This document shows positions 2,425 through 33,222 of a stretch of DNA of 39,124 nt, one piece after another. Both the position numbers and the translations under genes were made by a program. The stretch is from Spirogloea muscicola (Eukaryota; Streptophyta; Zygnematophyceae; Spirogloeales; Spirogloeaceae), in NCBI GenBank assembly GCA_009602725.1, contig WELB01000014.1, positions 1,160,974-1,200,097 of the forward strand, given 5' to 3'. Every line of letters starts with the position of its first letter. Position 1 is the first letter of the stretch. The notes under the pieces were generated by a model that worked only from the letters and a program-made list of their open reading frames with translations, made no database searches and was not told the DNA's origin.

Positions 2425-4029
2425 TCTGCTGTAGCAGCAAGCAGCAGTTGAAGCTCCTGCGGACCTCGCGGCCGTGGTACGTCAATGGGAGGACGGCGAA
2501 CACAACGACTCTGACGCCTGACGGGGGATGGTCTGGAGGACGCGTCAGATGTAGGGTGCCAATAAGGCCCCCTATCGCTGGCGCTGGGACCTACAGACAT
2601 TGATAACGCATCCGCCGTGCCCACTGGAGAGCTGCAGGAGCAGCTAGTGAAGCCTAGGAGCTCCGCGTGCCACCTGCCAGGCGCCCTGCTTCAAAGCCGA
2701 CCGTGACCCTAGACCCCGACCGTCAGAGCCCGAGCCCCCAAGCGGTGTGCTACGTGTGTCAGGCAGGCAGGGAGGAGTACCAGCGGTTGCCGCTGCGAGC
2801 GAAGTTCTGGAAGGCGGACTGCGGCCGAGTCGCTGCAGGCGGCTGCTGCGGCGCCGGCGCCGGGGCTGCCATGGGGGCCCGAGCCCGCGCTCTCAGGCCG
2901 CCATGGCTGCCTGCTCTTGAGAGCAGCAAAACGGAAGATGGGGGGGTTGGGGGTTTGGGTCCACGTGTCTGCTCTCAGGGGTTACGCGGATCTCGGAATT
3001 GGAATCTTCGGTGGGGACCCCGGCTTTTGCACGCGTCCGCCGCTTTGGGGCGCCGTCTCGTTAGCGGGCCTCGACGTGCTGACCGTGGGTATGCTTAGCA
3101 GCAGCAGGTGATGTGTATCTTCAATGCTTGCCTCTGTACTTGGCCACTCGGATCACGATCACACACTCCATTGTTTTACGTGGTCCTTGCTTACTTGTGT
3201 CTCTCAGAGCTATTTCATTCTTTATTGGCTGGCTTCTGCCAGCCCCTCTTTTCTATGGGCGAGCTCATTCTTCTATGCGGCCCCTTCGGACCCTGTCAAC
3301 TCTTTTCGGGCTGGCTTTCGCAGCCCCCCCTTTGGCGAGCCACTTTCGTTTCACCTATTCCCGTCCCTTGCCCGTTTCCCCAGTTTTTCCTTTGGCTTTG
3401 GACATTGTCCATTCTTTTTGGGTTGGCTTTGCCAGCCCCTCTGCACTCAAGCTCCCTCAGACCTTGTCCATTCTTTTGGGCTGGCCTTTCCCAGCCACCA
3501 GGCAATCTGGCCGCGCTTTCTTCTTCTCTATTTCATGCGCACCGCGCGCCTTCTCTCTATGGGCGAGCTCTTTTCTTTTCCCCGGCGACGGGCATTGGTG
3601 GGAGCGAGCGCCCACAGTGGCATTGGCATGGCACGCTCGTCCCGCCGCCGGCATTGGCGAGCAGCGCCGCGGACTGACCCTCCCCCACAACTGTCGTGCG
3701 GGAGCGGAGCGGGGCCAGCTCCCGGGGGTTAGGTGGCCCGCCCCTCTTGATCGGGCCACCCAATCGGTGCTCAAATCCGGCGGCGCCGCCGCACGCCCGC
3801 TACGTTGCAGTCGTGAGCCGTCTCTGACGGGAATCGAGCAGGGCGGCGGCATTCGCTGACGGATCCCGGCGGGGCCGCAGCTCCCACGGAAGCCATTACC
3901 GGCGCGGCGAGTTAAATCGGAACGGTGGGCCAAAACGGGCCGCGGGAAACACTCCCGCGACGATGGGAGAGTGTTTCTCCCCACCCCAGCCCCCACGCGC
4001 TGGCTCGGCGGCCCGCCCCCTGACCAGCT
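2425..4029. promoter_or_regulatory. Shared upstream region of the 64-aa gene and BTA1
   Basis: About 1.6 kb lies between two divergent genes. It is GC-rich at both ends with a pyrimidine-rich middle (3120-3560). The middle carries four copies of a short repeat, described separately, and two copies of a CTATGGGCGAGCTC word near 3253 and 3557. Long open frames cross it in several frames at once (for example 3113-3859). They are proline-, serine- and leucine-rich translations of the repeats and have no family similarity. It probably contains the BTA1 promoter and 5' untranslated or first-exon sequence. Confidence 0.5.
3216..3496 (+). repeat. Four-copy cluster of the ATTCTTTT-GGGCTGGC dispersed motif
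   Basis: Copies lie at about 3216-3246, 3291-3326, 3401-3438 and 3461-3496. Each has a T-rich block (ATTCTTTT or close), then G(G)GCTGGC, a 3-5 base spacer, and CCAGCC or a close variant. The GGCTGGC and GCCAGCC halves can pair as a short hairpin. Better copies are preceded by ACC(C/T)TGTCC. Related copies occur near 10457, 18274, 18399 and 33194, so this is a genome element and not a local accident. Function unknown. Confidence 0.7.
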
Positions 4030-4030
4030 T

Positions 4031-4031
4031 N
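4031..4031. other. Single ambiguous base
   Basis: One N sits inside a very GC-rich stretch just upstream of the first recognisable BTA1 residues. If a base is missing or extra here, the reading frame changes. It could link the ATG at 3963 to the BTA1 frame, so it prevents a firm start call. Confidence 0.9.
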
Positions 4032-4089
4032 GGTGCCGGGGCTCCGGGCCGCCCGGGGCCTGGCCGAGGACCTCACCTGCCTCTCCTCC

Positions 4090-7000
4090 ATGTGGCTCCG
4101 CAAGATCGGCGGCGCCACGCACAAGGAGCGCCTCGAGTCCTTCTACGGGCCCCAGGCGGCCGCTTGTGAGGGCCCCCCCAGGCCTGCTTTTACTGCTGAT
4201 CACAGCCTTGGCTGCTGCACGCCAGCTCCATGCCCAGCTCTGGCGACCAGTTCATTGGTGTACTTTTCGGAGCCGCCGAGCCATTGGCCTCACTCCACAG
4301 CTCCATGCCGACACATTTTGCAGACGATCGATTCCGCAAGGACTTCCTGCATGGCCGCCGGAGCATGCTGGCAGCGTGTGCAGCGCGCCTTCGAGGGTCT
4401 ACAGGCATGGTGTGGGTGGACCTCGGAGGAGGCACTGCGGAGAACGTTGAGATGCTGTCAGAGTACATCGATTTGGAGTGCTTCAGCAAGATATACGTCG
4501 TAGACCTCTGCTCGGCTCTCTGTGACGTAGCCAGGCAGAAGGCCAAGCGGAAGGGGTGGAAGAATGTTGTCGTGGTGGATGGCGATGCCTGCCTCTTTAA
4601 GCCGGAGGACACTGCCACTTTGATCACCTTCTCCTACTCCTTGTCCAGTAAGGATCCTAGCCACTCCTTCCCAAAACGTTCTCTGTGTCCTCCTGTCCAG
4701 CCACCTCTTTGCAGATTTTCTGTGATCTCTTCTTGTCAGCCAGCTTTAAGCGCCAGCGGCCTGGGGTGACTTGTGTTCGGTCTAAGTGTCTTCTTCTGGC
4801 ACATCCCTGTTTTGTCAGATCAAGCAAAAATAGTGGTGACATTGAGGTGGGGGTTTTTGGCGTATCTTGTATGCGCTTGAACTTGGAGGCGTACTCTGCT
4901 GTGCAGTGATACCGCCGTTCATGGATGCCGTAGATCAAGCTTTGACATACCTGGAGAAAGACGGCATCCTTGGTGTGACAGACTTTTTCACTTCAGCCAA
5001 GCATGACCTTCCAAATCGCCAGCACACCTTTGCACAAAGGTGGTTTTGGAGATCAGTATTTGACCTCGATGGGATCGATCTCGGGCCAGAGAGGCGCCAG
5101 TATTTGGAGCACAAGCTGGAACCTGGTAAGGCTTGTTCAACATAACCTCACTTCTGTGGAGAATATGGTGGCACGCTGCAGCAGTGTATGACTCCAAGGG
5201 CTGGGAGATATGGTCAATGTTCCTTGCAACAGTGGCGCAAGAAGGGTGTGCTGCCTGTGCTGTGAGTTGACAAGTGGTATCTACGTTGTCAGAGAGTGAT
5301 ATAGCTGGCCGACGGACTGTCTCCTGCAGTTTACGAGTACAATGGGCGTGGAAAGATACCATACGTGCCTTATCTGCGTGCTCCTTACTACACCTGGATT
5401 GGCAGAAGGCGTGAGAACACAAGTAAGTGTGGCAGGGTGGCACAGGCAGGGGGACGAGGCCATTGACTGCACACCCTTGGCAGACAGATGTCTCTTTGTG
5501 GAATGCATGCATTGAGCAGCCAGAAGCGTGTGCTAGTGCTGCCAGCAGTGCTCTCAATGCTTGTGAGCATGCACAATATGTCATGATGGATTGTTTTCTA
5601 CCCTCTCCCATTGCAGAGGTTGACCTGCGACGTTTTCCAGCTAGAGCCTCGGATGAGTTTGAGAGCAAGCGACCTCCAGGCTTCCCGCCTACATTTCTCT
5701 ACTCCTTGTCCTGGGAGGATCCTAGGGAGGATGACAAGGTTTTAGACATCAGTGAGCACGACACCGTGCTCACTCTGACATCCGGAGGTTGCAATGCCCT
5801 CGACCTTGTCCTCCAGGTAACAGCTGCTCGCTTACCACTTGATCCATCGACTTTTCTGTCCAAGCAGTCGCAACTTGAAACGCTACAGTATGTGGGTGCT
5901 CTCATTCCAGCAGGCTTCGGTAATTAGTGTGCTCAAAGTTGGCCAAGCCACATCCTTGCATCAACTACAGCTGGTTTGCTTGTCTCTGTGCTGCTTTTAA
6001 CAGGGAGCTGGCAAGGTTGTTGCTGTGGACATAAATCCTGCACAGAACCACCTCTTGGAACTCAAACGTGTGGCTATTGTCAGGTATAGTCTTGCAGTTG
6101 CACCTCTTGCCATCGCCTTGGCCAGAGGGCATTTCATCCTTCACTACATTTAACAATTGCTGTGCAGTGTCCCTACATTGCTTTTCAGCGTCAGCGTTTC
6201 GTTAACCATTGGCCATCCTGGCTACCTTCTTTGTTCTCTGCCTTGTCTCCCTGGCTTTCTTCTGGGACAGTGTATTGGCCTCTGAGATTGTCATAAGAAA
6301 CCAGAGGCCACGTGAATGCTGAAGGATCTCTCCTTATGCGTCCATGCAGGCTACCATTTATTGACGTCTGGAAAATGTTTGGAGAGGGAGTACATCCTAA
6401 ATTTATGAACCTTCTGGAGCGAGAACTGGCTCCTTTCCTTAGCCAGGGGGCTGTCAATTTCTGGTATGTGATCATTGTCAAGCCAATATTATTGTGTTGA
6501 GCTGTTGATCAAGTTCTTGGCAGTCTGAGGCTCCTGAAAGTGTCTTATGGTAGGTTGTTATATGCTATACCTGCAGGAGGAAAAAGGGTCCAAGGTACTT
6601 CAAGAATGGCATCTACTATCATGGTAAGTGTAATTGTTATCTCCGTCAAATTTTCCCATAGCAACTGTGATTCCACATCCAGGAGCCTTCTGATCTGAGC
6701 CTCTGAGCTTCTGAGCCTTTGAGCCTATGCTCCAGCTGAAGGTGCAAACCGTTCATGATGCAGGAGGAATGGGAAGGCTGATAAGAGCTGTGAGGATTCT
6801 TGCCAAGGTCACAAGGAAGGTTTGGCTCTGCAGCACTCACTCCTTTGTGACTGCAACATGCTGTCAAGAAGCCTTACTCAGAAGCGATTTCACAAGGCTA
6901 TGTATGATGCACTTGCCATCATATGGTAGGAACGTGCCAATGGATTCAGGTCGACTCTGCATGCAAGCAAACAAGTGTACAATGTTAGACTCTTATGCAA

Positions 7001-9319
7001 CCGTGCTGAATACTGCCTTTGCAGGAACAATGGTTAGAAAGTTTAGTAAATGCTCCGACTATTGAGAAGCAGTATGCACTGTGGTAAGTGAGTGAGGGAT
7101 GCCCTCCTCCCCCTTATCTGACCACATCAGCAGCATATCCAGGACGTATTTCATAGAGCCCTGCTACCAGGTCGTACAGCTTCAAGTGCAAACAGGATCC
7201 ATTTGCTATCAGAGATATGTGCTGCCTCATCGTAGCCTGTCATGTGGAAGGTCGGGTGTTTGGATAGTTGGCTTGGCCCAATGACAAACAATACCACAAA
7301 GCCCAGTACCTAAGATCAGTAGATTACTTACTTTGTCCTTTGAGATCCTCTTTCCCTCTTCTCTGGCAGGAGTGCAACTGTGGGGAAGTTCTTCCTGCAG
7401 GCAGGAGTTGCTGCACGACTTTTTGGATACCTCTTTTTCAACAGGGTGGTCCTCTGGTTTTGTGCTGGAATTGCAAAAGGCCAGCTCAATCTGATTAGGA
7501 AAGAGGACAATGTCTACAAGTAAGTTGTCAAAGGTCCCTCGGTGATTGCTAGCAGCAATTAGCAGTGAGTTGTCACTAGCACTTCACAGTGTGCACCTAG
7601 TGGGCATTGAGGCTAATTGAGCCTATTACAGAACTGCAACTTGTGGACATTCACTGACTGCTGAGTATCTAGCTCTCTAGTAACAGGAAGACAACGCAGT
7701 ATCCGCGTACTATGTTTGCCTTGCACTAATGCAATACTCATTGCGCTTTGTTATGTGCAGCTACATCGTTCGCTGCTTGAACTCCACAGCTGAAAACTCC
7801 CACCTTCGAGACGAGTAAGTCATATGCAACAATGTCGCAATCATGTTCACATGGCAACAATCGACCAGCATCAAACAAGAAAGGCTGACATGAGTCATGT
7901 AGAGAAGATGGAGACCAGAAGCTCCATTGGTCTACACTTTTCTTTTTAAGTACAGCATGGGATGAAGATGCAGTTATTCAGCACCTAAATTCCATACGCT
8001 GTGTGCAGTAATTACTTCTACCGCTGCTGTTTAACTGGGAAATTTTCTCCAACCTGCTGTCCACGGTTCTTACAAGAGGACTACTTCAATAAGCTCAAGG
8101 TCAGTCTCAGTCCTTCACTATTGCACTTGTGAGAGAGAGAGGCTGCTGCTTCTTGAAAGGTGGACTGCCAATGAGCTCTGGGTTGATCACCAGATTTTCC
8201 AGCCAGTGTGTAGGGCTCCGTAGTCAATGATTACCTCCTAGTATCATGATTTGAGCCGTCTTGTGCCATTTTCTATAAGCAAGGTGAAATGATGTAGTGC
8301 AGCTGGTAAGGCCGTTCAGCTTGACAGGCTCATGACATGTCCTGCAGGTAGAGCTTGCTAGTGCGGAGCGTATGAAAATCTCAACCTCATTCTTTGTTGA
8401 GGAGCTGAAGAAGAGGAAGTACACCAAGGTAAATATCATATAGATGGACATGTTAATATTGAGGGCAGATCATTGTCTGTCTGCACCCTGCAGCTTTTCA
8501 AGCTGATCCTACTTGCATTCAGTACCTGCTTACATGCAGTCTCCTTGTGATATCACTTTCAGGTCATTTTAATGGACCATGTTGATTGGTTGGAGCAAGA
8601 GGACATTGACAACCTTTGCGAAGCTTTGTGTGGGCAAGTGGAGGTACATTATTTTGTTCCATTGTCTTGATCAGGGTCAAGGGGAGGCAATGCAGTCTTG
8701 CCATCATGTATTACCCTGTTCTTGACCTGTTGCAGACACAGTGGTTGCTAAACAGACAGCCTGCTTCAGACAAAAGCTCATGCCAGGCTTGTTGCATATG
8801 TTGCTGCAGCCTGGTGGCAGAGTGATCTGGCGTAGTGCCTCACGCTGCCCTGCATATGCACGATGTATAGAGAAGGCTGGTTTTAGAGGTACTTTGAGCT
8901 GGCACTATCGCTGTTGCTCGTTCTCTCGCAGCACTTTCAAGAAAGATGGATGTTTTTTACCTGGTGTTGGCATGTTGTGTTTAGGTATTGGATGGGTGCA
9001 GTATTTTGCATTTGACATACAAATGCTTTTCACACCTGGGGTTTGCATGTTGTGACCAAGGTGTTGGGTGGGTGCAGTGATCTGCATTCGGTCCACAAGT
9101 GAAGAGCAATACATGGACCGCGTCAACATGTATTCAAGCTTCTACTTAGCCATACGGCAGGGAGGCCCTGCTTCGTATGAGATTTTTAATAGCCCGCCGG
9201 ACCCCTTGACGGTGCACTATGCCAATGGTAATGGTCATATCAAGCTGAATGGAGAGGAGGACTCCCCCAAGTCTATCCTGAATGGTCCAAGGACCCCAGA
9301 TGCCTCAGTGGGCGCTTAA
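4090..9319 (+). CDS. BTA1: Betaine lipid (DGTS) synthase, bifunctional BTA1
   Basis: This enzyme makes diacylglyceryl-trimethylhomoserine. The BtaA half transfers the aminocarboxypropyl group of S-adenosylmethionine to diacylglycerol, and the BtaB half N-methylates it three times. Exons: up to 4165, 4324-4647, 4907-5125, 5330-5422, 5617-5816, 6004-6083, 6350-6463, 6577-6623, 6764-6807 (or 6819), 7025-7083, 7370-7519, 7761-7814, 8009-8099, 8348-8428, 8563-8643, 8810-8888 and 9078-9319. From the ATG at 4090 this gives about 677 aa. The N-terminal half has HKERLESFYGPQA and the methyltransferase motif WVDLGGGTAENVE. The C-terminal half has SLSWEDPREDD, LTLTSGGCNALD, AVDINPAQ, LMDHVDWL and PGGRVIWRSA. 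The methyltransferase-first order is that of the Chlamydomonas enzyme and is the reverse of fungi (family knowledge). The start is uncertain: the frame is open upstream to a TGA at 4021, next to the N at 4031. The end of the ninth exon is also uncertain. It acts on ER or other extraplastidic membranes. Confidence 0.93.
8957..9090 (+). repeat. Diverged tandem duplication of a splice acceptor and exon start in BTA1
   Basis: Two copies, about 75 bases apart, begin with ACCTGG at 8959 and 9034. Both run through a GGGTGCAG acceptor, ending at 9001 and 9077. The downstream acceptor opens the last exon in frame (VICIR). The upstream copy would read V, F, C, I and then TGA, so it is a decayed copy inside the intron. 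Confidence 0.75.
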
Positions 9320-10456: not shown

Positions 10457-10490
10457 GGCTGGGAGAGGCCAGCCCAGGAAAAAGAATGAA
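10457..10490 (-). repeat. Copy of the ATTCTTTT-GGGCTGGC dispersed motif
   Basis: Read on the minus strand, this has ATTCTTTTT, then GGGCTGGC, five bases, and CCAGCC. It is preceded by GGCCCCTTC and CTCTTGTTC, which also align with the copy at 3291. It is one of the best preserved copies and the only one not near a gene's 5' end. Confidence 0.65.
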
Positions 10491-11059
10491 CAAGAGTTTG
10501 AAGGGGCCAAAGGAACGTGCTAAAGCACACAGGGAATCAAGCAGCTGTGAAGCACTCAGTAACTCCTGTTGAGCAGCCGCAGATCGGAGAAATTAGTCTC
10601 CCGGTGGCAAGTCCCCTGGCCAGGGCCAGAGGCTGCAGCTAAGGCACGACCGGCAAGCAGATGTAGCGCGCGAGCCATTAACCTCTGCAGCGAGACGGAC
10701 AGGAGCATGCAAAACAACTGTGCAAGCGAGCCTGCAGCACGCAAATCCACCGGCTTCCCATGGTACTGGCGGGAGAGTTGTAGAACAGTCTGCCAGTCAG
10801 TGCACAGAAAGCAAGTGATCTGCAGGTCGTTTGCTTGGTGCTGGGGAAACTTCCAAGTCTGCCAAAGGCCCTAGCATCTGATAGAAAAGAAGAGCCTGCT
10901 TGGAGCCGCCTCGATCACACCGACAGCTGGACACTGACAAGTCTGCCAGTCTCGAGTAAGTTGACAATATAAACAGTTGTATACAGCCAAAGCAGGGAGC
11001 AGGGGCAAGCCATCCCCCACACAACTCTGGAGCATGCAAGCCGATGGAGCACATTCCAT

Positions 11060-11105
11060 GAAGTTTGACGAAAACTTCTGACATCTGCATGATAATGCAG
11101 ATGTC
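11060..11105. repeat. Two adjacent perfect hairpins downstream of clpC
   Basis: GAAGTTT (11060-11066) pairs with AAACTTC (11072-11078) across five bases. Immediately after it, GACATCTGCAT (11080-11090) pairs with ATGCAGATGTC (11095-11105) across a GATA loop. Both arm pairs match perfectly. They lie about 175-220 bases past the clpC stop, so they may be in its 3' untranslated region. Confidence 0.7.
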
Positions 11106-11278
11106 CATGCTCATAGCAGCTACATAAGAAAGTAGGGTGTGGTCTCAGGGATTTCAGGGCTTCAGAATCTCGGACTTGAGCTCCACTCCAGCAGAGCATG
11201 CTGACCACCTCCATCTGTGGAATTTACCTTGATAAGAAGCGGCGTACACCTATGCTGCAGGGTCTGCTGGAGAATGAT

Positions 11279-14200
11279 CTAGACAATTCCGCTTGCTGCC
11301 TCGATCGCAGTCGTTGAGGCTGTTCCTGTGTTGCCATTGAGGACTGTGATGTTACCATTTGCATCTACGTCCACAATGGCAGAGTCGCCCTCCTATGGGT
11401 CATAACATGAAGTCTTGGAGTCAGTGATTGTCAGTAACAGAAAAGGGGCTTGAAAGCATTCTTTCCACATTAGGTCAGAGCAATCAAATAGACAGGTACT
11501 GAGATAGCTCTGATCAGCAATCATGGCCACCCTCATCTGGCAGAATGGGTTGCTGCCTTTAGGGGTACTGCACATGTAATGTCCTCCTGCTTGATGCAAA
11601 TAGGCTGATAATCGAGGGTGCAGTACAACTGCTCAAGCTGTGAGAATGAGATGACTGTACCTTGATGGAGCCCTCAAGCAAGCGTTCCGCTAGGTTATCC
11701 TCAAGGAGCCGCATGATGGCCCTCCTCAGTGGCCTGGCTCCGTAGCTGGGGCTGTACCCTTCATCAACCTGCAACGAAGACGAGCACGTCATCAGCAGCA
11801 GGTGTGCACCGTGCTCCAACAGCATCCAGCCTTCAGCAAAGCTCTATAAACTGACCTCGGATTCAGAATTCTGCAACTTGACTTCAACTTTGTAACTACT
11901 CGCATGGCATCCCAACATTCCTAGGGAAGCTTGCACTATGACCAAGGCATGCCTCCATGAGCCAGCATACCACTCGGTCCTTGAAGCGTTCTGTGACCTC
12001 AAGATTGATCTCCTTCTTCTTCAAGCGCTCAAAGACCTCCTTGAGCATGAGGTCAGCAATTTCCTTGACCTCCAGCTTGGTAAGCTGGCGGAACACAATA
12101 ATTTCATCTAAGCGATTCAAGAACTCAGGTCGGAAGTACTGCTTCAATTCTTCATTCACCTGCACAACATGCAGAAAGGTAAACTGTTAGAACCTCTCTT
12201 CTAACTATTCTTGTGATGACACGGTCGACTCCTTGAGTACTTCGGCCCATGCCACATGCTCTTGCTTCACTCAGCAGCTGCACATGCAGGCCCAAAGGCC
12301 TATACAGGTTATAGGCCTTTGTATACTGTTGACTGGAGGTGATCTTCATTTATGTACTTGACATTCAAATATTCTGTGTGATTCTCAGTAACCTTGACTA
12401 ACGCTTCAGCAAACAATCGTGACTTACAAGCGACTTGATGCGGTTGTAAGAAGTATCTTTCTCATCATAATCGAGCTGGAAACCTATTCCACCGCCCCCT
12501 TTCTCAATGACGGAAGAGCCAACATTAGACGTCATGATGAGGAGAGTGTTCTTGAAGTCCACAGTGCGCCCTTTGCTATCCGTCAACCGTCCATCCTCAA
12601 GGATCTGAAGCAAGAATGTCAGCTTACTAATGGACCGCTTATTCAGACGGAATGTCCTTATTCAGCTTCTACTCTTACACATTGTTTTGTCAGAATGCTA
12701 GTCCTCCTTCTCATAGGCAATTACGTGAGCCATGATGGTTGTCACCTTCTAAGCCAGCATGCTGTCATCAGTGCCATCCACTTTCATTAGTTAAAATAGA
12801 TCTATGAAAGGTCTACCATTGCTTACTGCTGCTGGCAAATGAGCAGGTTGAGTGGGCTTCCAAGGGGGTACGACAATCACTTACCTGCAGCATCATGTTG
12901 AAAACATCTGGATGTGCCTTCTCAATCTCGTCAAAGAGAACCACAGTGTAAGGCCTGCGGCGGACAGCCTCAGTGAGTTGGCCCCCTTCTTGGTAGCCTA
13001 CATAACCAGGCGGCGATCCAATGAGCTTCGACACGGTGTGGCGCTCCATGAACTCGCTCATATCCAGCCGAATCATAGCCTGTAGACAGCACACAAGATC
13101 AGAAAAGCAGATGCTAGCTTGTGAAGAGAGCAGAAACACAATAGAAAAGCACTGAGGTGAAGCATTACAGCAACCTTGAGAAAGAGCACCACACTTCCAA
13201 ACCCACCTCCTCAGAGCCATAGTAGTAGGCTGCCAAGGACTTGGCAAGCTCTGACTTGCCGACTCCCGTTGGGCCTGAGAATATGAAGGAGGCTACGGGC
13301 CTGTTTGGATTCTTAAGGCCAACCCTTGCCCTTCTGATTGCTCGGCTGATGGCTCGCACAGCCTCCTCCTGGCCAATCAAACGCTGGTGCAGATTCTCCT
13401 CCATCTTCAGAAGCCTGCTGGACTCATCAGAACTCACCTGCAACAAGGCCTAGTGGTCAGGCCTGCCAAGATACTCATGTAAGAGATACTAGCTGCACAT
13501 GGAGGTCTGGTATCTAACAAGAAGTAGAAACGGTATGTGCTTGCAGGAGAAGACTGGTTCGCTTGCAGTTAGACGGGATCTGACAATTAAATGGGACAGA
13601 CTCTTACCTTGTCAACCGGTATGCCAGTCCACATGCAAACAATATGTGCAATGTGTGCTTCAGTCACAATAGGGCCGCTGTCTCCGGACTCCTCCTCAGC
13701 CTTGTTCTTCTCCTTGTCCTTGGACACAAGAGCATTGATTTGCGCCCGCAGCTCCATCTCTTTGTCCCTCATCTCGCCTGCCTGCAACAGCATGAATAGG
13801 TGCCAGGCCATGACTCAGTGGAAAATTTCCGGGTACCTTACAAACCATGCGACCACAGAAGTTGTGACTACATTGTGAGCAGCTTCTCGCCTCCTGTGAC
13901 TTTCTGATGCTAACCACGATGTAAGCCCACCCAATCATACATACAGTGCAGATAGATATGAGTGGGTGCATATAGCTGCAGCTTTTGCAGAAAGGAACAT
14001 GCTTTTTCTCAAGTATACGAGCAGCAATGGCTCGTCCACCCACACTATGGTTTGCAATATAGATATGCACACCTTCTCAAAGTCTTGATTGCGAACAAGT
14101 TCGTCCTTCTCCTTGGTGAGAGCTCTTAATTCTTTGTCTAAGGCGCGGGCTTCCTCTGGGAGCTGTTGATCAGAAGACATAAGTTGTTTAGGGTGAGAGC

Positions 14201-17200
14201 TCTCAATTCTTTGTCTGAAGTGTGGGCTTTCTCTGGGAGTATTTCAATAAGAAGAGATGACTTATGTGGTTTAAAGAAGTGATAACAAGTGCCACTATAT
14301 TGGCAATCACTGAGATGAAATGCGCAGTATCAAGAAGCGCTTGAAGGAGTGTATGCAAAGTAGACCAACTGCACCTGGCCATGTTGAAGCCGGACACGCG
14401 AGCCAGCCTCGTCAATGAGATCGATGGCTTTGTCAGGGAGAAAGCGATCACTGAAAGAATACAGACCCACATGTGATCAGTTAATGCCATCTACCAGACT
14501 CAAGATACGCAAAAACAATGTCACGTCTAATGACACATAAGTGGTGGAGGAGCAGTAAGGCAATGCAAGACATGTGGGGAGTACAATACCTGATATACTG
14601 ATATGACAATTGGGCAGCAGAAACGAGTGCTTCGTCAGTATATCGCAGCTTGTGATGGATCTCATAGCGCTCTCTTAAACCCCTCAAAATATCCACGGTC
14701 TCTTCGACAGATGGCTCCGGAACCTGAGCCACAGTTACAAGGCATTTCCGAATTGAATAATATGTAATGTAAATGTCCCTGTAAGTGTTGCAAAGTACAG
14801 ACTTTAAGCACAACAAGTAGATGATGGTTCGTGCAGGCCTGAGTGTCTGATTTGTTGGACTACCATGACTGGCTGGAATCGCCGTTCGAGAGCAGCATCC
14901 TTCTCGATGTGCTTCCGATATTCGTCGAGTGTTGTAGCACCTATGACCTAGGTAGTGCACGTGAAGAGCTTCAGGAATGAGGCGGTACCAGCCATGCAGT
15001 TGGAGCACACCAGCTATGCAGCAAGAGCACAAACCCCAGAAACTTAAATACTCCAGAACTTCAACCCTGAATCATGCTCATTGAGACTAGAAGAGGCTGG
15101 GCAACTACCTGCAATTCTCCTCTAGACAAGGCAGGCTTGAGAATGTTAGCAGCATCTATGGCCCCCTCGGCTGCTCCAGCACCAATTAGAGTGTGGACTT
15201 CGTCGATCACAAGGATGACATCTGAAGATGCCTTGATCTCTTCCATCAGCTTCTTCAGGCGCTCCTCAAATTCCCCTCGATATTTTGTGCCTGCAACCAG
15301 CAGCCCTAGGTCCAGGGTAATGACCTGCAAAAGCACAAATCTTGTCCATGCATTATGCAACTTTTCTGCTTCACTTCGATGTATTTAGGGATAACAACAC
15401 TTCCTGTGAGTAACTTAAGTAAAAGCATTGCCGTACGTTATTTACTCTTGCAGATTGCAGTTTGCACTCTCACCCTCTTGCCTTCTATGGTCTCAGGGGC
15501 ATCCCCACTAGCAATTCTTTGTGCAAGACCTTCGGCAATGGCTGTCTTGCCAACACCTGGCTCACCAACCAGGCAAGGGTTGTTCTTCGTTCTCCGCCCT
15601 AATATTTGTGTGACCCGCTCAATCTGAGGCTTTCTTCCTACTACGGGGTCAAGCTTGCCCTGAACACAGGCAAGACACAGTCTCAGTGTTTCCCGAAGCA
15701 GCTAACAAGCAACGAGAATGACACGATCTTTGATAGTAGTAGCCTGCAGGAAGAGAGGAGAATGCACCTCCATTGCCATCTTGGTGAGGTCTGTGCCGAA
15801 CTCCTCCAAGGTTGGAGTCTTGGTTGCTTTTCCAGATGCAGCTCCTCCAGTGGTGACAAGGTCATTACTCTCCCCCACCATCCTTATTACCTGCAGCAAT
15901 GTGATCAAAGTAATATATATGGCTCAACAAGCTTTTATACGAAGTTTTGCAGAACGAGAGCATGGTCATGCACAAGGGGGACGTCAGGGCCTGACGATGT
16001 CAAATTTGGTCAAGCTTAGGGGTGTCACAAGGGCAGACCAAGCCAAGAAGCACTGAAACACGGTGACGCACATGTAGCATACCTGTCCACTGTGGAATGA
16101 GCCAGATATGCAGAAAGCCTGTCTGCTCTACTCAAGACTCCTCTTGTAATGGCATGCATTATCAGTGTGCGCAGCACTACCTGATAGACAAGCTTTCTTA
16201 ATCAGGGAGGTTGAAGTGTCAGAAGCGGTCTCGGCTAACACAATTGCCCTGCAACCCCACTCCAAAGTCTTATGCTCACTTGAGTGCGGATCTTCTGAGG
16301 GTCGGCCCCGAGATTCTCAAGGACCCGAGCAGCAACACCCTCGCCTTCAAGTAGAAGACCCAGCAGCAGGTGCTCTGTTCCGATGTAGTTGTGACCTAGC
16401 ATGACAGACATTATACAATGCCAGGACGCCATCAAGACGCCACCGACGATTATTGAGCAAGACTGTGAGGGTGAGTGCAGTGTGGTGCTTTTTGCTCTGC
16501 AGCGGAACTGTCAGTGCACCCAAATCTGTGACTTAAGAGCAGAATTGACTAAGCAGGGACAAGAAGATGCAGCAGATGGCGAAGCAGGATGAAGGCTGTG
16601 CTTTAGTACCAAGCTGGCGAGCCTCTTCCAGAGAGAGCTCCAGGACGCGCTTTGCGCGTGGCGTAAACGGTATCTCCACGGCCACAAATCCACTTCCCCT
16701 ACCGATGATCTGCCACATGGTATGGTATATCACTTTGTTATAATAGTCAGAGGACCATGGCACAAGACAGCTCCAAGGCTCCAACAATGATGTTAACAGC
16801 AAATTTGAGTATCTATGCATAGACAGCACCTTTTCCACTTCCGTTCGACCCTCTTTGAGATTCACGCCCATGGATTTCAATACTTTGGCTGCTATTCCAG
16901 TCCCTTCTCCAATAAGTCCAAGCAGAATCTGCAGAGCAGATGGCAGAATTCTATCAAAGTAGACTGCAGACCGTGTCCAATCCTTTGCATTAACACAACA
17001 GTATTGCATTTGACTTCTGGTAGCTCATGCCTCCTCACTGGAGAAGTCACGAGCTTGAGTTGCGGGGCAGCACAGGAAGCCACACTGACGCAATGACAAA
17101 GGGGTGGACAAAGTCAAGTGTGCAAACCTGCTCGGTCCCAACAAAATTGTGGCCTAAACGCCGAGCCTCCTCTTGTGCTAGCATGACCACTTTGATTGCC

Positions 17201-17855: not shown

Positions 17856-19112
17856 GGCGCCCCTCCCACGCTCTCCCTCTCTCTCCCTCTCTCGATATCC
17901 CGCTTCCCACTCTGTGGCCTGGCGAGTGCGCTCCCCTGGCGTGCTGCCAGCGACTTCGAGGCCTTGCCGCCGCCGCCGCCGTCGCCGCCGACGCGTCTGC
18001 CGGCGGGCGCTCCGCGGGCGGGCGCGGGGGAGCGTGCTCGGCTGGCACGTCCGACTAGGCCTCCACGAGGCGGGCGAAGCTGCAAGCTCAAGAACCCGAG
18101 CGCCCCAATCCACTTTCTGCACTAGCTTTCGCCTCAGCGATGAATTGGCGTCAATTGGCCACCCTTTCGTTTCACGCGCACCCCGCGCCGTCTCTCATCC
18201 ATCAGACCGAACGACTATGAAGCGTTCGGCTGAACAATTGGAGAAAGAAGGAAGACTCTTCCGGTAGCGGCGATGGCTGTTCTTGGCCAGCCCAGAAAAA
18301 GGGTGAGCAAAGTTGGGGGAAGCCAACCAGAGGCTTGGATGGTTCCGCCACATATGAACAAGAGCTCATCCAACAGGAGATGACGGTGTGAGAAAGAAAG
18401 GTCAGCCCGAAAGGAATGTCCAATGGGGCTGTAAAGCACAGACCCTTCAGCAATGCAAGCTACAAGCTGCTAGTGCAGGCAGTTGCTGATGAGAGGAGAG
18501 AGAATGTTGGTAAGGTGCCCCACACCTTGCGAGCTCGCACCTATCTCAAGCACCTGCAGCTTGTGTGGGCCGGCTGCCATACACTGACTTTGGCCACCTT
18601 CACTAGCCACTTGCAGCCGCCTGTGCTGGAGCAACTGGACTCGAAATGCAGACAGCTGATTGCGTGAGTCTTGCTAAAGCTGGGCAGTGGCGAAGAGTCA
18701 AAAGGAGGAAGAATCCACGTGTCCTGTCACATGTGCAGTTACTTTGCATGATGGACACACATATGCTACGAGAGACAAGTGGCCACGCTTGGACTCCGTA
18801 CAGGTGCCTCGTAAGATGGCGCGGAGGCATTCCTTGTGGTGCTGCACAGCGATGCTTGTCTACGAGAATTAGTGTACATCTTTCTATTTCCTGCTGAGAA
18901 ATCTCCGCTACTCGTAGCTGCAAAGACGATGAACGAACGAACTGCCCAGGGACCCACTTAAAATGTTGTGGTATCGGCACTGCCATTCATGTGTAGGCTG
19001 ACCACTACTGCCAATTCAGGGTCCTGACTGTGGAACTGTGCACGCTACTCTAGCTCTCAGATCGATTAGGCAAGTGGGATTATCTTTTCTAAATGGCAAT
19101 GCATCACTGACC
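17856..19112. promoter_or_regulatory. clpC upstream region and CCCH gene downstream region
   Basis: The clpC 5' side is very GC-rich, with a CT-rich tract at 17869-17897 and CCG/CGC repeats at 17966-17998. An antisense frame of over 200 codons here is a composition artefact. At 18167-18195 a TCACGCGCACC...CTCTC word resembles 3533-3562 upstream of BTA1. Two minus-strand copies of the dispersed motif lie near 18274-18305 and 18399-18420. A plus-strand frame at 18416-18667 (83 codons) has no similarity that I recognise. No other gene seen. Confidence 0.5.
18274..18420 (-). repeat. Two copies of the dispersed motif upstream of clpC
   Basis: On the minus strand, 18274-18305 reads CACCCTTTTTCT then GGGCTGGCC. 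The other copy, 18399-18420, reads GGACATTCCTTTC then GGGCTGACC. The right half of the hairpin is poorly kept in both. They lie about 420 and 540 bases upstream of the clpC start, in clpC orientation. Confidence 0.5.
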
Positions 19113-21740: not shown

Positions 21741-21751
21741 CGCCGCCGCCT

Positions 21752-22476: not shown

Positions 22477-25758
<3,282 letters not shown>

Positions 25759-25822
25759 GGCTGCAGGTCCTGAAAGCGACGCGGAGGCAACGGTGGCGAC
25801 GGCGGGGGCGGCGACGGCGCGG

Positions 25823-25823
<1 letters not shown>

Positions 25824-25886
<63 letters not shown>
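25824..25886. repeat. (GGCGAC)n hexamer microsatellite in the UAP56 leader
   Basis: About ten copies of GGCGAC lie 66 bases upstream of the UAP56 start codon, most likely in its 5' untranslated region. On the sense strand this is (GTCGCC)n. It keeps reading frames open on both strands and so produces false arginine-rich proteins. Confidence 0.9.
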
Positions 25887-27314
25887 TCCGGAGGCGCGAC
25901 GACGAGCGGACTGTGCACAGGATCCGGCAGCGGCTGCAGCTAAGGCGGCAAGAGCGGCTGAGGTGGTGAAAACAGTGGTTGCGACGGTGATTGCGACAGC
26001 GACGGCGCCTGCGACAGCGGCGGCGGCCGCGGCGGCGGCGGCGACGGCGGGCGGCAGTCACCCGAGCAAGCAGGCGCGGGGCGGGGGGGGGCGGGGCGCG
26101 CGGCTTTGGTCCGGAGCTTGCGCGAGTGCTCGACTATGGCGGGGCGTAGTGGCGCGAGTCCAAAAAACCCTAGCCCGGGGGGGCGCGGGGCGGGGGCCCG
26201 ATCCGGATGCGCCCATCGAAGCCGTCGGTTTGGGGTCGATCTGCGCCGTCCCGACGGCGCTCGGCCAGCCTGCGCCGTCGATCAAGGAGTGGCGGAGCAG
26301 GGCGTACAGGGCCTGACGCGGCCAACGAACGGCACACTGACCTCCGTCCCGTTGGCGTCCCGTCGCGAGAGCGTCTAGTCGGAGGAAGCCAGCCGTCCGA
26401 TGCGCCAGATTAGGCTCCGATTGACCAGCCTTTCGGCCAGCCTCCAGCCGGAAATAGAGTAGACATCAGAGTTGCTCATTCTCTGTGTTCCCGACTTTCT
26501 TCTGTAAGTCAGAAAGGTGCTCTTGCACAAGAGATGGCCCCCTTCTCGTCCTTTTGTTGATTTTTCTTCTTTCACAGCCCTTCGCCCCGTTGTGGACGAG
26601 AGCTGCGTATTCTCTGATTCTTTGCCCACCACAGTGGGGGCCGCAGCTTCGTTCCGCTTTCGCTCCCACAAAGCCCACGCTAGCATGATCGCAGCCCCGG
26701 GCATGGCGGCGCGGGCGCCGGCCCGGGGCCGCGGGCAGGCGGTGCCGGGCTGCCGTCGGCCTCCGGCGGCGGCGCGACGACGCGCCGCCAACCGCCTAGC
26801 GGCCTGAGAGCCTCTGCGAGAGCGCGCTGCTGTTTCATCCAGATCGCGGCTCTCGTCCAGCCGGCTCAAGCCCCCATTGCAGCCTCCGTCGTCAGCAGCG
26901 GTCTACAGCTCCGACTTCCCGAGACGTCTGACTGAGACCGAGGCGCAACGATGCAGGCGAGTCATTCTCCGCATGCTGCGTCGCGTGGCGTGCCGGACCC
27001 TGGGCGCGGCAACTGTTGATTTTGCTCCGAGAGCTGGCCTGACGGGCAACACCAAGGACGGTCGACCAGAGATGAGGTTCTCGCCCGTGCGCGCAGGAGA
27101 TAAGGGGATCACTGAAAGAGGCTCTTCGGTCTTCCTTTGTAGTATTCAGTGAAGGGTTTTATTGGTTAAGGAGGCCTCTCATTGCTTTCTGCGACAGCTA
27201 GCCCGAATGGCTTCCTGAACTCTGGGCGAGCCTGTTACTCACTTGCTGCATTTGCTAGTTCGCTGACAGCAGAGCTTGCCGGGTCCTACGTGTGTACTGC
27301 GCGTACAGGGCGCC
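25887..27314. promoter_or_regulatory. Bidirectional upstream region of UAP56 and the PPR-SMR gene
   Basis: The space between the divergent start codons is GC-rich on the UAP56 side and more balanced near 26400-26650. It contains a telo-box-like word (26165-26173). Long frames on both strands, for example minus 26375-26869 (164 codons), have no similarity that I recognise, and their composition follows local GC. A minor further gene here cannot be excluded. Confidence 0.5.
26165..26173. promoter_or_regulatory. Telo-box-like AAACCCTAG
   Basis: AAACCCTAG occurs once, about 400 bases upstream of the UAP56 ATG. In land plants, telo-boxes of this sequence occur in promoters of ribosomal-protein and other growth-linked genes. 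Whether algae use it is unknown, and one 9-mer may be chance. Confidence 0.35.
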
Positions 27315-30300
27315 ATGTTGCGCAGCAAGGTCGCTGTCCCACTGCTGAAGGGTGCAAGGGCCGTCTTTGCTGCTGGCGCCACACACAGCTCGCGATCGCC
27401 CGTGGAGACTGTGCTGCAGCAATCGCAGCAGCAGAGCGACGAGCAGCACCGCTCGAGGCCAGCGTTTGCTGGATTGCCCCAGAGCCAGCCCCAGCCCCAG
27501 CCACAGCCGCTCCTCGCTCCCTACTTGCCGCCCATCTCACCGCCGCTTCCGGTCTTTGCAGCAGAGCAAACCCTGAGGCACGGCAAGGCAAGCGTGAGCC
27601 CTGAAGGGACTCCCAATGCTCTGATTAGTCCGGCCCTGGTGGGGCCTCCGCCGGGCTTCTCGTCCCTAAGGGGAGAGAATGCATCTGCGACTCCCTTTCC
27701 TGATCCAAGGACCAAGGTGGTATACACCATACCCGCTGCCAAGCAAAGTGGTCTGGCATCCCCAACAAGTGGAAGCCCTCAGACGCAGCTCCCCACCCCA
27801 ATTGAAAGCTCCAACACAAACAGAGCGCCTCCCTACATTGCTGGTCAGGAAAGTTGCACAGAGAACAATAGAGGGAAGCTCGTTGCACCCTCCCATGGAG
27901 CTGAGTTGGAGGTGACAGATACAGGGCTGTCATGCGGGGAAGCGGAGGCTGGCGTTGTGCGTCAAGGAGGGCCCACCTCTGACTCAGGGAGCAGTCCAAG
28001 TGCTGCTGCTAGTCACGGGGTTGACAGAGCTCCGCTTGTGAGAGGTGCTGTGGAGGACAGCCAATATTCTTTGCCGCAGGCCCATGGCACAACCAGGGGA
28101 AGTAGCACACCGTCGACAACGACCGGGGCAATCGCAGGCTCCCGAAAATTCCACAGTGGCACACATTCCCCAGGGTCTACACCGCACAGCCATGCCAGGC
28201 AATCTGCGGTGGAGACTTCCATTCTGTATAACCAGCCCCAGAGACACCATCAATGGCTGCCGATATCAGGTCACTCGCAGGTAGCAGTCACACCAGCATA
28301 CAGACAGCCAGGTTCTTCAGTACAGCTAGCAGCAACACGTGCTGAGGAAGGACCCAGACTGGGCGCGTTCCTGCCAAGCAGCGCTGGCCAGGCAGATCTG
28401 CATGTGCAGTTACCTGTCTTTGGCCCGGCCTTACCACGTCCTCATGAGGCCGCTGGCAGCGAAAGGAGAGATGCAGTCAGGCCAAGCCATGGGGATCTGA
28501 AGGCTGGTAAGGGGCATGTGCACCAGTTCCACAACACCAGCCGGAAGCCCAAGTTGGGGCCTCACCATGAGGTGGTTGGAGACGTCATTGCTGCCCTGCG
28601 GAAGGTGCGTCATGCCGCACTTCCAATCCTGCATCCAAAGTACTTGCGATTCTGTTTCCCTTGAAGTTTTTATGAGCCCCTGTTCCACGTTCTAAGATTT
28701 GGCGCCTTTCTTGCATAGTGGTTTGATGGTGCGAAGCTGCACAGGCTCAGGTGTTGAGCAGCAGCATGCAACTCTTTTCGCAGATGCATTCAGATGCCCA
28801 TGGAAGCTTGGACCTTGCTTTGAAGCCCTGGAAGGGAGCTCTCAATCCATATCACATGTGTGACGTGCTAAAGCAGCAGCGTGATCCAAGACTAGCAATG
28901 GACTTGTTCCAGTGGTACAAGAGTCAGGCGCGCTCGAAGAACGACGTCTTTGTGAGTACTTTCTATAAGAAGCAGTTATGCAGCTTTTACTTTCTCTGGA
29001 TGGCGGGGGCAACTTTTGATTGCGAGGTAGCTTCTCCATGTTTTAGTTGTGGCTCTGAGGCGTACATGCTGATTCAGGTCAGGTTGTATTGCAGCTCTAC
29101 ACGACCCTGATTGTACTCATGGGTAGGACGAAGAACATTGCGGCAGTTGAACAGCTGTTCAAGGAGATGCAGGATGAAGGCTGCGAGCCGTCTCTTGTGA
29201 CTTACAATAGTGTCATGCATGCATATGGCAAGGCCAACCTGCTGGATGAAGCAAAGGCAGTATTTGACCACATGAGCACTTTGGGCAAGAAGTTGGACAC
29301 AGTAACCTATGGGTATGCTCAATCATGGATCTTGACCTCAATGCGTGTGTCGCGACAAATATAGGAGAGGTGTATAGAAGCACAGCACTTCATATGTAAG
29401 CCCACTCAGATGGTATGTGTGATTCATCGATTATCAGTTATTGATGTAGAAGAAGCTGATATCTTCTTCAATTATGGTGCTGCAGCACGTTGATTGACCT
29501 TTACAGTAAGGCAGGCCGCCACAAGGATGCCATAGACATCTTCAATAAAATGAAGAGCTCAGGCTTGAAAGGCGATGTCGTGTCATATAGCATGCTGATA
29601 TCTTCATTCGGACGAATAGGCGATCTCGTATCTGCTGCAAAGCTTTTCCAAGAAATGACAACAAAAGGCATCCCGCCGAATCACATCACATGTAAGTGGC
29701 CTGCTCACTGGCTACTGGCATTTGAAATTGTTGTCAGCTAAGAAGTCAAAACTGTGGCGGCTTTAAAGCCAGACAAGCTTTTACACGAGCTTGATTGAGC
29801 ATTTCTGGAGCAACTACTGTGCTGGTTTTGCTGGTATACTTGTCTGAAGTGGCATCACAGTCGTGCATTATCTGCTCATTTGCTAAGTGCAATTGCTTGA
29901 TGCTACATGAACAGACAATACAATGATAGACCTGTATGGAAAGGGAGGGAGGTACTCTACAGCTATCAAGCTTTTCCAGGAGATGAAAGACTCTGGCCTC
30001 AAGTGCGACAGGGCAACTTACAGGTGCATCCTCTTACTTTTTCTGCAAATTAGAGCAGCAGAGAAAATATGCTTTTACCTTCTGTTTTTGACAAGACTTT
30101 GTGCAGTCTATTTCTTCTTCTTGTTGAATCATGAGGTGACTTGGAGGGTCAACTGTCAGTTTTAGGTGCACAGTAGTCACATGCAGGATTTGCCGTGTCC
30201 CTGCAGTGCAATGATCAATCTGTGTGGGAAGGCTGGTTACTACGCTGAGGCCGAAGCCTTCTTCACTGAGATGGAGGATGCCGGTATTCAAGCTGATGCA

Positions 30301-31677
30301 ATAGCATACTCCATCCTAGTTGACATGTGGGGCAAAGCTGGACAGCCGAGAAGAGCTGGCAAGTGGTTCAGGACTATGATACAGGCCGGCTTGACTCCTA
30401 GCCCTCCTGCCTGTAAGCTATGTCTGCCAATTACAGTGAGCAGATTATTAGCGTGCTCTCCCTTTATGACTTCCATGTGCAAACCTCTGTGAAGATTAGC
30501 AGCAGCAGTAGCAGCACGACTGTCATTGCCTGTACGCACTGCTTGCTTTTACCAGTTGTTGTATGTTCCAGGCAGCCCTTTGCTATAGGTCTGACTAGTT
30601 CTTCTGCCGTTTCAGTTAATGCACTGATGCATGCATATTTGAAGATGGAAATGTATTCCGAGACCAAGCACATCTTCGAGACAATGCTGCGTGGGAGCGT
30701 AATTCCCAATCTGAAGACATACACCCTGCTGCTGTCTTCATGCACCGACTGCTCTGAGCAAAATGGAGTTGACATATGCTTGGAGCTTATGGCCTGCACA
30801 GGACACCCTGTACACAGCCTCGTCAAGCTTCTCCTGCAGGTCAATAAAGACTACTCAATACTCGGATTGTGTTAATATGTAACTGTTGGTTTGTTGGCAA
30901 GTTGTGTTTCTTCCTTCCGAATAACACAGTTTGCCCTTGTGCCAAAGCAGGATACTGCAGACCCATCAGAAGAGGATGCAATGATGAAGCAGGTTGGGCA
31001 GTTCATGGAACAAATCAAGCAGCACGAGGAACACGAGTCACGCCGCGCGTTCACCGACTGTCTCATAAGTTTCTTGTATCAGTACGGCAGGAGAGAGAGG
31101 GCTGCACGTGTGTGGAGAGAGGCCAACTACCTCCACATGTTTCCGTCAGCATTTCGGGGGTCTGACAACAATCTGTGGAGCCTAGATTTACATTACATGT
31201 CTCCAGGCACAGCTATGACAGCAGTCAAGGCGGAGCTTAGCACGTTGCGCGAAAGGGCCATGAGCGGAGGTCTTCTGCCACAGAGACTGGAAATCATCAC
31301 AGGTTGGGGGAGGCGGAGTCGTATCATTGGGACATCCTTCATTAAGAAGGTAATTTTGGATATCTTTGTGAGTGAAGAGTATTGCGAAGTGCAGCAGCAT
31401 GGCCTCAATGCCACCATATATTGCTTGCTCCACAGGGGGCACTAGAGTTCCTCCACTTGCCTATGCTTTACTTGTTGCTGCATGCTACCTACAGTTGACA
31501 ATGTCATTCTTGGCTCCTCAGGCTGTTGAAGACCTCCTGGATGGGGTCGGATCTCCATTCAGGATGGATGTCAACAATGTAGGCTGTCTGTATGCGCCTG
31601 CCCCCGAGGTGATAGAGTGGCTCATGCAGCCTGAAATTGACAGAATACTTGCGGCACGCAACTTTGACCCACCTTAG
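27315..31677 (+). CDS. P-class PPR protein with C-terminal SMR domain (organellar)
   Basis: This is an organellar RNA-binding protein with a C-terminal SMR (MutS2-related) nuclease-like domain. Exons 27315-28604, 28784-28951, 29095-29312, 29486-29691, 29915-30023, 30207-30412, 30616-30839, 30951-31349 (or from 30930) and 31522-31677 give about 991 aa. The ATG at 27315 starts a basic, acid-free leader (MLRSKVAVPLLKGARAVF) that looks mitochondrial. About 400 aa of Gln/Pro/Ser-rich linker follow. One degenerate and nine clear 35-aa PPR units follow (for example TYNSVMHAYGKANLLDEAK), then TYTLLLSSCTD and CTGHP. The SMR domain keeps LDLHYMS (LDxH) and ITGWGRRS (TGxG), both needed for nuclease activity in active members. 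The order and the linker motifs match the Arabidopsis At1g18900/At1g74750 type better than GUN1 (recalled, not searched). Its target RNA is unknown. Confidence 0.93.
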
Positions 31678-31797
31678 CAGTTGTCAGGCAATTATATCAA
31701 CGGCATCAGTGGTCTGCCCCTTAGGCCACCCACTACTATCAACCCTCGATTTAGAAACCTCTCTGTGTCCCATGTGCCCAACATTGAGTAAGCGTGT

Positions 31798-31802
31798 TGT
31801 AA
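31798..31802 (+). terminator. Probable polyadenylation signal TGTAA of the PPR-SMR gene
   Basis: TGTAA is the green-algal polyadenylation signal (established for Chlamydomonas and relatives). This copy lies 121 bases past the stop codon, a plausible 3' untranslated length. The five-base word is common, so support is moderate. Confidence 0.5.
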
Positions 31803-32000
31803 AAGTGTGTGCCCTCAGTCACATGTGGAACTTATTGGCTGTAGCCTGCTGCACCTGCAGAGGAAGTTCACAAGCATGCCCATCAATTCCTGAGTATGCA
31901 GCATGTATGTGTGACATGGCTTGCTGGCTCGTGTGCTGGGGTGGAATGCCACTCGCAGTGGCCTTATTGATTGACTAAGAAGGGAACAGTCAAGCATCTC

Positions 32001-32025
32001 GAATTTCAGGCAGTGCCTGAAATTC
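32001..32025. repeat. Perfect inverted repeat, 12-base arms
   Basis: GAATTTCAGGCA, one central G, then TGCCTGAAATTC form a perfect palindrome. It lies about 325 bases downstream of the PPR-SMR stop. A further GAATTTCAG occurs near 32309. It could fold as a hairpin or bind a dimeric factor. Confidence 0.8.
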
Positions 32026-32774
32026 AACCCTAAATCCATTGCCTGATATCCTCTAGCTTGACTGCATGCTGTAAGAAGTACAAGCCTTGGGCTCGTGATG
32101 CTTTCAGCTTCTCCTCTACATGGCTTTCGTGATCATGAATCATGCAAGTCTGCGTTGCTGCGTCACCACGTCAGAGCAACTTGTAATGTGACAAGCTAGG
32201 TCTTCACTGCATCAAGGTACTGACGAACCTATTGGGGGCTAGCTTTGTGGTTAGCACTCACATTGGCCAGCTTTGCCACATTCCCAGACAGCATTCAAAC
32301 CCCTCTGAATTTCAGATTTTACGATGTTGGAATGATGTTGACCCGGATTTAAGGCAAGTTGATAATACAAAGGACTTGCGAGTGTGAGTTGCGAGGGGCC
32401 AGCCAGTAGCAACGACTAGTCTAAGCAAAAAAAAGCAACGGTGTAAGGCCGAGAAAGAACCAGCGGAGCAAACAGGAGGAGGCCTACACTACGTGAGTGC
32501 TTAGCAAAACCAATGCTCATCAGCCCCTCAGATAGACAAGGCCAGCTAGCTCATAGGCAACCAGCATTGTCCATACATCACACTCATATGAGTAGCCAGG
32601 ATCTGCCAGCCCCTGAGCCGCATGCGGAGCACCTGGGCAAGCGACCCCAAAAATCCTCAAACAATAAGTGCAAGTGGCTGGTAGAGCCCCCTCCAGGAAA
32701 CGGCGGGGAAAACGGCGGGCGAGGACAAACGGGAGGGCGCCAAGGGGGGCAGCCACGCGGCCGCGTCGCTGGCC

Positions 32775-32848
32775 CACGTGGCCAGCCAGCAGGGCGCCGC
32801 GGGGCCTTCCACGTGGCGACAGCAAAGGAAGTGGTCCAGCCACGTGGC
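32775..32848. promoter_or_regulatory. Three CACGTGGC (ABRE/G-box) elements
   Basis: CACGTGGC occurs at 32775, 32810 and 32841, with spacings of 35 and 31 bases, about 600-670 bases upstream of the 78-aa gene's ATG. CACGTG is the core bound by bZIP and bHLH factors, and CACGTGGC is the ABRE consensus of stress-inducible plant genes. Three identical 8-mers in 75 bases is well beyond chance even in GC-rich DNA. Confidence 0.65.
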
Positions 32849-33193
32849 GCAGCCCTGCGCCGCGACGCCAGCGGCTTGCAGGCCGCCCCGGCGCCCCCTC
32901 TTTTCATTTCTTATTCAGCAGCCGCATTCTTCATCATCAAAGGACCCCCCCCTCCCTCCCCGCTTCCCCATCAACGCACGACCACGGGGCTCTCCCTTGT
33001 CCCCCTCCCCCCCCCTCCTCCACTCCGCCCCTCCTGTGGCCCACCACCGCCTCCCCCTCTCTCTCCTCCTCCCCCAGCTCTCCAGCACCCGCCCACCTGC
33101 GAGCGAGCGAGCTCTGGGTCGCCCACCTCGCCCATCTCTCGCCTGCACAATTCCTTGACTGTCGACAGCCTGCCCGCCTTCCGCCCTTTCAGG

Positions 33194-33222
33194 CCTTGTA
33201 CATTTTGTGGGCTGGCATTCCA
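33194..33222 (+). repeat. Copy of the dispersed motif upstream of the 78-aa gene
   Basis: This reads CCTTGTACATTTTGT then GGGCTGGC and ATTCCA, matching the copy at 3461 except for the right half. It lies about 220-245 bases before the ATG at 33441, in gene orientation. Confidence 0.55.

What the first reader, a model, noticed from the sequence alone, without database searches (positions are those of the whole stretch)
3216..33222. A dispersed ~45-bp motif recurring near gene 5' ends
At least eight copies of one pattern occur: (ACC)nTGTCC, ATTCTTTT, GGGCTGGC, short spacer, CCAGCC. Four lie upstream of BTA1 (3216-3496), two upstream of clpC (18274, 18399, clpC orientation), one upstream of the 78-aa gene (33194, gene orientation) and one downstream of clpC (10457). 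Seven of the eight are oriented with, and upstream of, a gene. The inverted GGCTGGC/GCCAGCC halves could form a hairpin or a dimer-binding site. It may be a shared promoter element of this lineage or a very short non-autonomous repeat that settles near promoters. I know of no named element with this sequence.
Basis: partly seen in the sequence, partly recalled or inferred. Interest (0 to 1): 0.72.

Follow-up and report, generated by a model that had tools for sequence, protein, structure and literature searches.

The report
Short dispersed repeat in algal DNA
A roughly 45-50 base sequence with a small hairpin recurs seven times between genes in a stretch of probably green-algal nuclear DNA; it looks like an old dispersed short repeat, and a role as a gene switch is possible but not shown.

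Summary
The repeat is real. A weight matrix built on the five best copies (GGGCTGGC block at + 3226, 3308, 3420, 3478; - 10475) finds each again when it is left out of training. It then ranks 18293(-) and 33209(+) next; none of 60 shuffled windows has a hit that good. The (ACC)n part is not shared. Homology is confined to about 45-50 bp and flanks are unrelated. The closest pair (87%) lies 7 kb apart on opposite strands, so the cluster before BTA1 is not one tandem duplication. The hairpin is perfect in one copy and decayed in others, without covariation. The promoter claim rests on four loci, three upstream and co-oriented: not significant. No own genome is held; the collections searched gave one chance bacterial hit. 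Best reading: a lineage-specific short dispersed repeat, comparable to chlorophyte short palindromic repeats. A composite promoter element is the main rival.

The parts
3208..3248 (+). copy c1: ATTCTTT block and perfect 7-bp GGCTGGC/GCCAGCC hairpin; GGGCTGGC block 864 nt before the presumed BTA1 ATG
3289..3327 (+). copy c2
3401..3440 (+). copy c3 (8-bp hairpin with one G-T pair)
3460..3497 (+). copy c4, closest to c5 (87% over core columns)
10457..10500 (-). copy c5, between the presumed convergent 3' ends of clpC and BTA1
18274..18316 (-). copy c7, 438 nt before the presumed clpC ATG; not used in training the matrix
18393..18432 (-). doubtful copy c6, 3' arm absent
   Evidence: score 13.3; partial pairwise support
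33191..33229 (+). copy c8, hairpin arm broken, 232 nt before the presumed ATG of a small ORF; not used in training the matrix
3253..3266 (+). CTATGGGCGAGCTC box between c1 and c2; the same 14 bp recur at 3557
   Evidence: spacer comparison 1 of 500 shuffles
3557..3570 (+). second CTATGGGCGAGCTC box, downstream of c4

Best explanation
A lineage-specific, degenerate family of short (about 45-50 bp) dispersed repeats that sit in intergenic DNA of a probably green-algal nuclear genome. Each unit is a pyrimidine-rich 5' half followed by a small GC-rich hairpin. Shown: the copies, their approximate boundaries, and the lack of flank homology. Inferred: that they spread as a unit (by template switching, gene conversion or transposition of short hairpin DNA), that they survive where insertion does little harm, and that most copies are decaying without a function. 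A few may have been taken up by promoters.
For: Seven copies well above chance. In ungapped comparison identity is 52-100% from -8 to +23 around the GGGCTGGC start and 17-46% outside; with cores masked, flanks of different loci are no more alike than shuffles. The closest pair lies at different loci on opposite strands (c4 and c5, 87%), while 9 of 10 comparisons between spacers and flanks of the BTA1 cluster show no kinship. Hairpins range from perfect (c1) to broken (c8), without covariation. One copy lies between presumed 3' ends, where no promoter of the flanking genes is expected. Precedent: Volvox carteri has short palindromic repeats (average 50 nt in its organelles) whose nuclear copies are often degenerate in the stem (passages of PMC2670323).
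Against: No target-site duplication or terminal inverted repeat was seen by eye. All four loci lie outside my rough gene bounds and three are upstream of and co-oriented with a gene, which a regulatory site would also give. GGGCTGGC is the best-conserved block across loci (100% against 52-62% beside it), although the copies were found through that block. The regions of clpC-upstream and the small ORF do not match each other significantly even with their cores (74 of 200 shuffles), so membership of c7 and c8 rests on the matrix and on c4/c5.
Confidence: 0.52

Rival explanations
1. A composite cis-regulatory element: a pyrimidine block and an inverted GGCTGGC/GCCAGCC site bound by a dimeric nuclear protein, clustered four-fold before BTA1 and present before clpC and a small ORF.
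For: Three of four loci are upstream of and oriented with a gene; bounded core with unrelated flanks; four sites in 290 bp with almost no spacer homology.
Against: Four independent loci only; with even odds per strand, co-orientation at the three upstream loci has a chance of 1 in 8. One copy lies between presumed convergent 3' ends. Distances to the presumed start codons vary from 232 to 864 nt. About 45 bp is long for one binding site. c8 lacks the second arm.
Confidence: 0.25
2. Nuclear remnants of an organelle short palindromic repeat, moved in with mitochondrial or plastid DNA, as its authors propose for Volvox carteri.
For: Small unit, short-loop hairpin, stem decay and noncoding position match what passages of PMC2670323 describe; Coccomyxa organelles carry GC-rich repeats of 20-250 nt (passages of PMC3162594).
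Against: Half of the unit is not palindromic. No organelle sequence of this organism was available. Four direct copies in 290 bp are not expected from rare transfers.
Confidence: 0.12
3. An RNA element of 5' untranslated regions, acting through the hairpin.
For: c1 and c3 fold better than nearly all shuffles (0 and 1 of 200 as good); in-register pairing of the stem (71.9% of cells) exceeds all six slid versions (31.3-54.7%).
Against: c7 and c8 fold no better than shuffles (77 and 118 of 200); no excess of compensatory change; copies lie 232-864 nt from presumed start codons.
Confidence: 0.06
4. Chance resemblance in pyrimidine-rich upstream DNA.
For: The region 3001-4000 is T-rich (AT skew -0.305), the shuffles do not keep local composition, and c6 is near noise.
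Against: 0 of 60 shuffled windows give a hit as good as any of the seven; c1-c5 also exceed shuffles of their own stretches pairwise (0 to 2 of 500).
Confidence: 0.03

Closest known systems
Short palindromic repeats of Volvox carteri, organelles and nucleus (PMC2670323, passages read)
   Same: Short unit (average 50 nt in organelles; nuclear matches average 29-39 nt), small hairpin with short loop, noncoding positions, degenerate stems in nuclear copies, both orientations
   Different: Here the 5' half is a pyrimidine-rich, non-palindromic block; the loop is not the TTTA/TAAA type; no link to organelle DNA was shown
LIMP palindromic repeats of Lobosphaera incisa mitochondria (PMC4524435, passages read)
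   Same: Short dispersed palindromic repeats in intergenic DNA of a green alga
   Different: LIMPs are (AACCA)m-loop-(TGGTT)n and mitochondrial; the paper says its mitochondrial repeats are virtually absent from the nuclear genome
MITEs (recalled)
   Same: Small non-autonomous units near genes
   Different: MITEs are usually longer, with terminal inverted repeats and target-site duplications; none seen here by eye
Plant site II promoter element TGGGCY (recalled)
   Same: Four of the seven accepted copies (c4, c5, c7, c8) carry TGGGCT
   Different: A 6-bp site, not a 45-bp unit with a second arm; c1, c2 and c3 read TTGGCT, CGGGCT and TGGGTT; not tested further

Membership tests
Chlorophyte short palindromic repeats | Short dispersed unit that can fold into a hairpin | tested here: met
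   Hairpin of 5-8 pairs at the GGCTGG/CCAGCC arms in 6 of the 7 accepted copies; in c8 the predicted fold uses other bases
Chlorophyte short palindromic repeats | Whole unit palindromic | tested here: not met
   The 5' half lies outside the main hairpin in the predicted folds of c1-c5 and c7
Chlorophyte short palindromic repeats | Many copies in noncoding DNA genome-wide or in organelles | not testable with these tools
   No own genome held
MITE | Terminal inverted repeats | tested here: not met
   The shared inverted repeat is internal, in the 3' half
MITE | Target-site duplication | tested here: inconclusive
   None visible by eye; the unit's ends are not exact
Promoter cis-element | Strand and distance bias to transcription starts | tested here: inconclusive
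   3 of 4 loci upstream and co-oriented; 232-864 nt from presumed ATG; transcription starts unknown
Promoter cis-element | Conservation at orthologous promoters, protein binding | not testable with these tools
   No related algal sequence came from the scans made
Structured RNA element | Compensatory base changes in the stem | tested here: not met
   1 both-side change in 64 cells over the 8 aligned rows, reached by 337 of 500 shuffles; no Rfam match at gathering score in the window

The most novel reading that the evidence does not exclude
A long composite promoter element specific to this algal lineage, in which a pyrimidine block and an inverted GGCTGGC site spread as a mobile short repeat and were taken up to co-regulate genes such as BTA1 and clpC.
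Probability: 0.18. Interest if true: 0.6.

Novelty: new member of a known kind. Interest (0 to 1): 0.33.

Why it matters
If the family is genome-wide it would be a short nuclear repeat whose spread into gene-upstream DNA can be counted, and a test of whether such repeats become promoter parts. As it stands it is a modest finding resting on four loci in one window.

Tried and rejected
Longer transposon: not supported within this window, since core-masked flanks of the four loci are no more alike than shuffles (6 pairs: 200, 163, 198, 79, 193 and 100 of 200 shuffles reach the observed score). Limits of that control: the mask missed c1, and the shuffled sequences had the masked bases removed. Unmasked, 4 of the 6 pairs reach 0 of 200, one 5 of 200 and one (clpC upstream against small ORF upstream) 74 of 200.

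Tandem duplication before BTA1: not supported, since of 10 spacer and flank comparisons only one (the shared 14-bp box) stands out, 1 of 500; the other nine are reached by 77 to 492 of 500 shuffles.

3' splice sites of upstream introns: considered because the copies end in a pyrimidine stretch plus CAG; by eye no usable GT donor lies between c1 and c2 or between c3 and c4, and this was not tested further. Helitron-like 3' hairpin: no CTRR end by eye. Bacterial-type signals between 3100 and 3700: 0 promoter-like sites; 4 terminator-like sites against 1.5 expected, of which two are the c1 hairpin and one the GGACATTGTCC of c3; not meaningful in nuclear DNA. Rfam: no match at gathering score. tRNA: none. 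A second hairpin at 18330(-) (GGTTGG/CCAAC) scored -11.8 and was dropped.

Outside relatives: 3 DNA-pattern scans of viral contigs found nothing; 2 protein scans of viral contigs, with one BTA1-region ORF and one tryptophan-rich ORF, confirmed no relative; the first genome-contig scan found nothing, the second found one match inside a bacterial ORF, judged chance. Literature: one search searched three motif strings and listed 12 papers; by title none is on algae or repeats, and I opened none. Searches looked for algal repeats and promoter motifs (searches list only part of their hits); I read passages of PMC4524435, PMC3162594 and PMC2670323 and saw only listings of the rest. None of these searches showed me a paper that names this sequence.

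Results dropped: one search scored the pairs c1-c2, c2-c3, c3-c4 and c6-c7 on overlapping stretches, so those scores were self-matches; all 28 pairs were repeated on non-overlapping stretches. One search used too strict a pattern and found nothing.

Full report
What was claimed.

Is it there. Yes for seven copies. I aligned the eight proposed copies and built a three-block matrix (pyrimidine block, GGGCTGGC, CCAGCC, with variable gaps) from c1-c5. Leaving each out in turn, all five are found again with scores 31.7-42.9, and none of 60 dinucleotide-shuffled windows has a hit that good. The matrix then ranks c7 (18293, 29.4) and c8 (33209, 26.8) next among separate sites, again 0 of 60; the next unrelated site, 20817, scores 19.9 with E about 0.6. 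Pairwise, c1-c5 support each other (0 to 2 of 500 shuffles), c8 is supported by c2, c4 and c5 (0 of 500 each) and c7 by c5 (0) and c4 (1) only. c6 (18408) scores 13.3; pairwise it resembles c2 and c4 (0 of 500 each) but not clearly the other five (8 to 111 of 500), so I keep it as doubtful. The (ACC)n part is not shared; the consensus of the 5' part is close to GCCCCTTCAGACCTTGT.C.

Where the copies lie. Pfam supports BTA1 (DUF3419 in one ORF, methyltransferase families in another), ClpC (AAA_2), a DEAD helicase and a PPR gene, and gives a thioredoxin match just under the curated cut-off (22 against 23.5 bits). The names BTA1 and ClpC, the gene starts and the green-algal origin are my inference from these matches and from recalled sequence features. 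Rough gene bounds set by hand cover 25.3 of 39.1 kb; all seven copies are outside them. The four BTA1 copies count as one locus, so there are four loci; three are upstream and co-oriented. With even odds for strand at those three, that is 1 in 8: no evidence of bias. In the 1 kb upstream of five presumed starts, the DEAD helicase (best score 12.2) and the PPR ORF (18.3) have no copy; other genes of the window were not tested in this way, but the whole-window scan found no further copy.

What kind of thing. Ungapped identity between one copy per locus is 100% at GGGCTGGC, 52-62% in the next blocks from -8 to +23, and 17-46% outside; gapped alignment carries the 5' part further, to about -25 to -35. 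With cores masked, flanks of the four loci are not alike. The spacers of the BTA1 cluster are unrelated except for a 14-bp box, CTATGGGCGAGCTC, at 3253 and 3557. c4 is closer to c5 (87%) than to its neighbours (73-82%). This is the pattern of a short unit that moves as such, or of a bounded functional site; it does not look like a fragment of a longer transposon, as far as these four loci tell, nor like a local tandem array.

Hairpin. As RNA, c1 folds into a perfect 7-bp stem (0 of 200 shuffles as good), c3 into an 8-bp stem (1 of 200), c2, c4 and c5 into 6-bp stems (6, 13 and 18 of 200), c7 into 5 bp (77 of 200); c8 folds through other bases (118 of 200) and c6 through an upstream arm (1 of 200). 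Counting the stem on the 8-row alignment gives 71.9% paired cells, above the slid versions (31.3-54.7%) but not above the column shuffles (mean 73.0%), and one both-side change, reached by 337 of 500 shuffles. The hairpin is real in several copies but is not shown to be maintained.

Outside evidence. No genome is held for this window. Three pattern scans and two protein scans of viral contigs gave no relative. Of two genome-contig scans, one was empty and one gave a single match that lies within an ORF of a Balneolaceae contig, which I judge chance. Literature passages show that green algae do carry short palindromic repeats in organelles and, in Volvox, in the nucleus as well.

Verdict. A true short repeat family, most likely a lineage-specific dispersed repeat; promoter function is open. 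What is shown is the family and its approximate boundaries. Mobility, decay and any regulatory role are inferred.

Noticed in passing
14115-14162 and 14192-14239: A 48-nt stretch of the clpC region is repeated 77 nt apart at 88% identity; one copy overlaps ClpC-like coding sequence, so it may be a duplicated exon piece.
   Followed up: no
34430-34537: Two head-to-tail copies of a 54-bp unit, 94% identical.
   Followed up: no
775-802, 11080-11105, 12293-12321, 32001-32025: Perfect inverted repeats with 11-12 bp stems and loops of 3-5 nt, by eye unrelated in sequence to the motif.
   Followed up: no
18385-18432 (-): In the doubtful copy c6 the GGGCTG block pairs with an upstream CAGCCC rather than a downstream arm (1 of 200 shuffles fold as well).
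   Followed up: partly
36117-37493 (-): ORFs rich in tryptophan, which recall the ESV1/LESV starch proteins (recalled); no Pfam match for the part tested, 36117-36566.
   Followed up: partly
25795-26055: Long GGCGAC and GCG repeats just upstream of the presumed DEAD helicase start.
   Followed up: no
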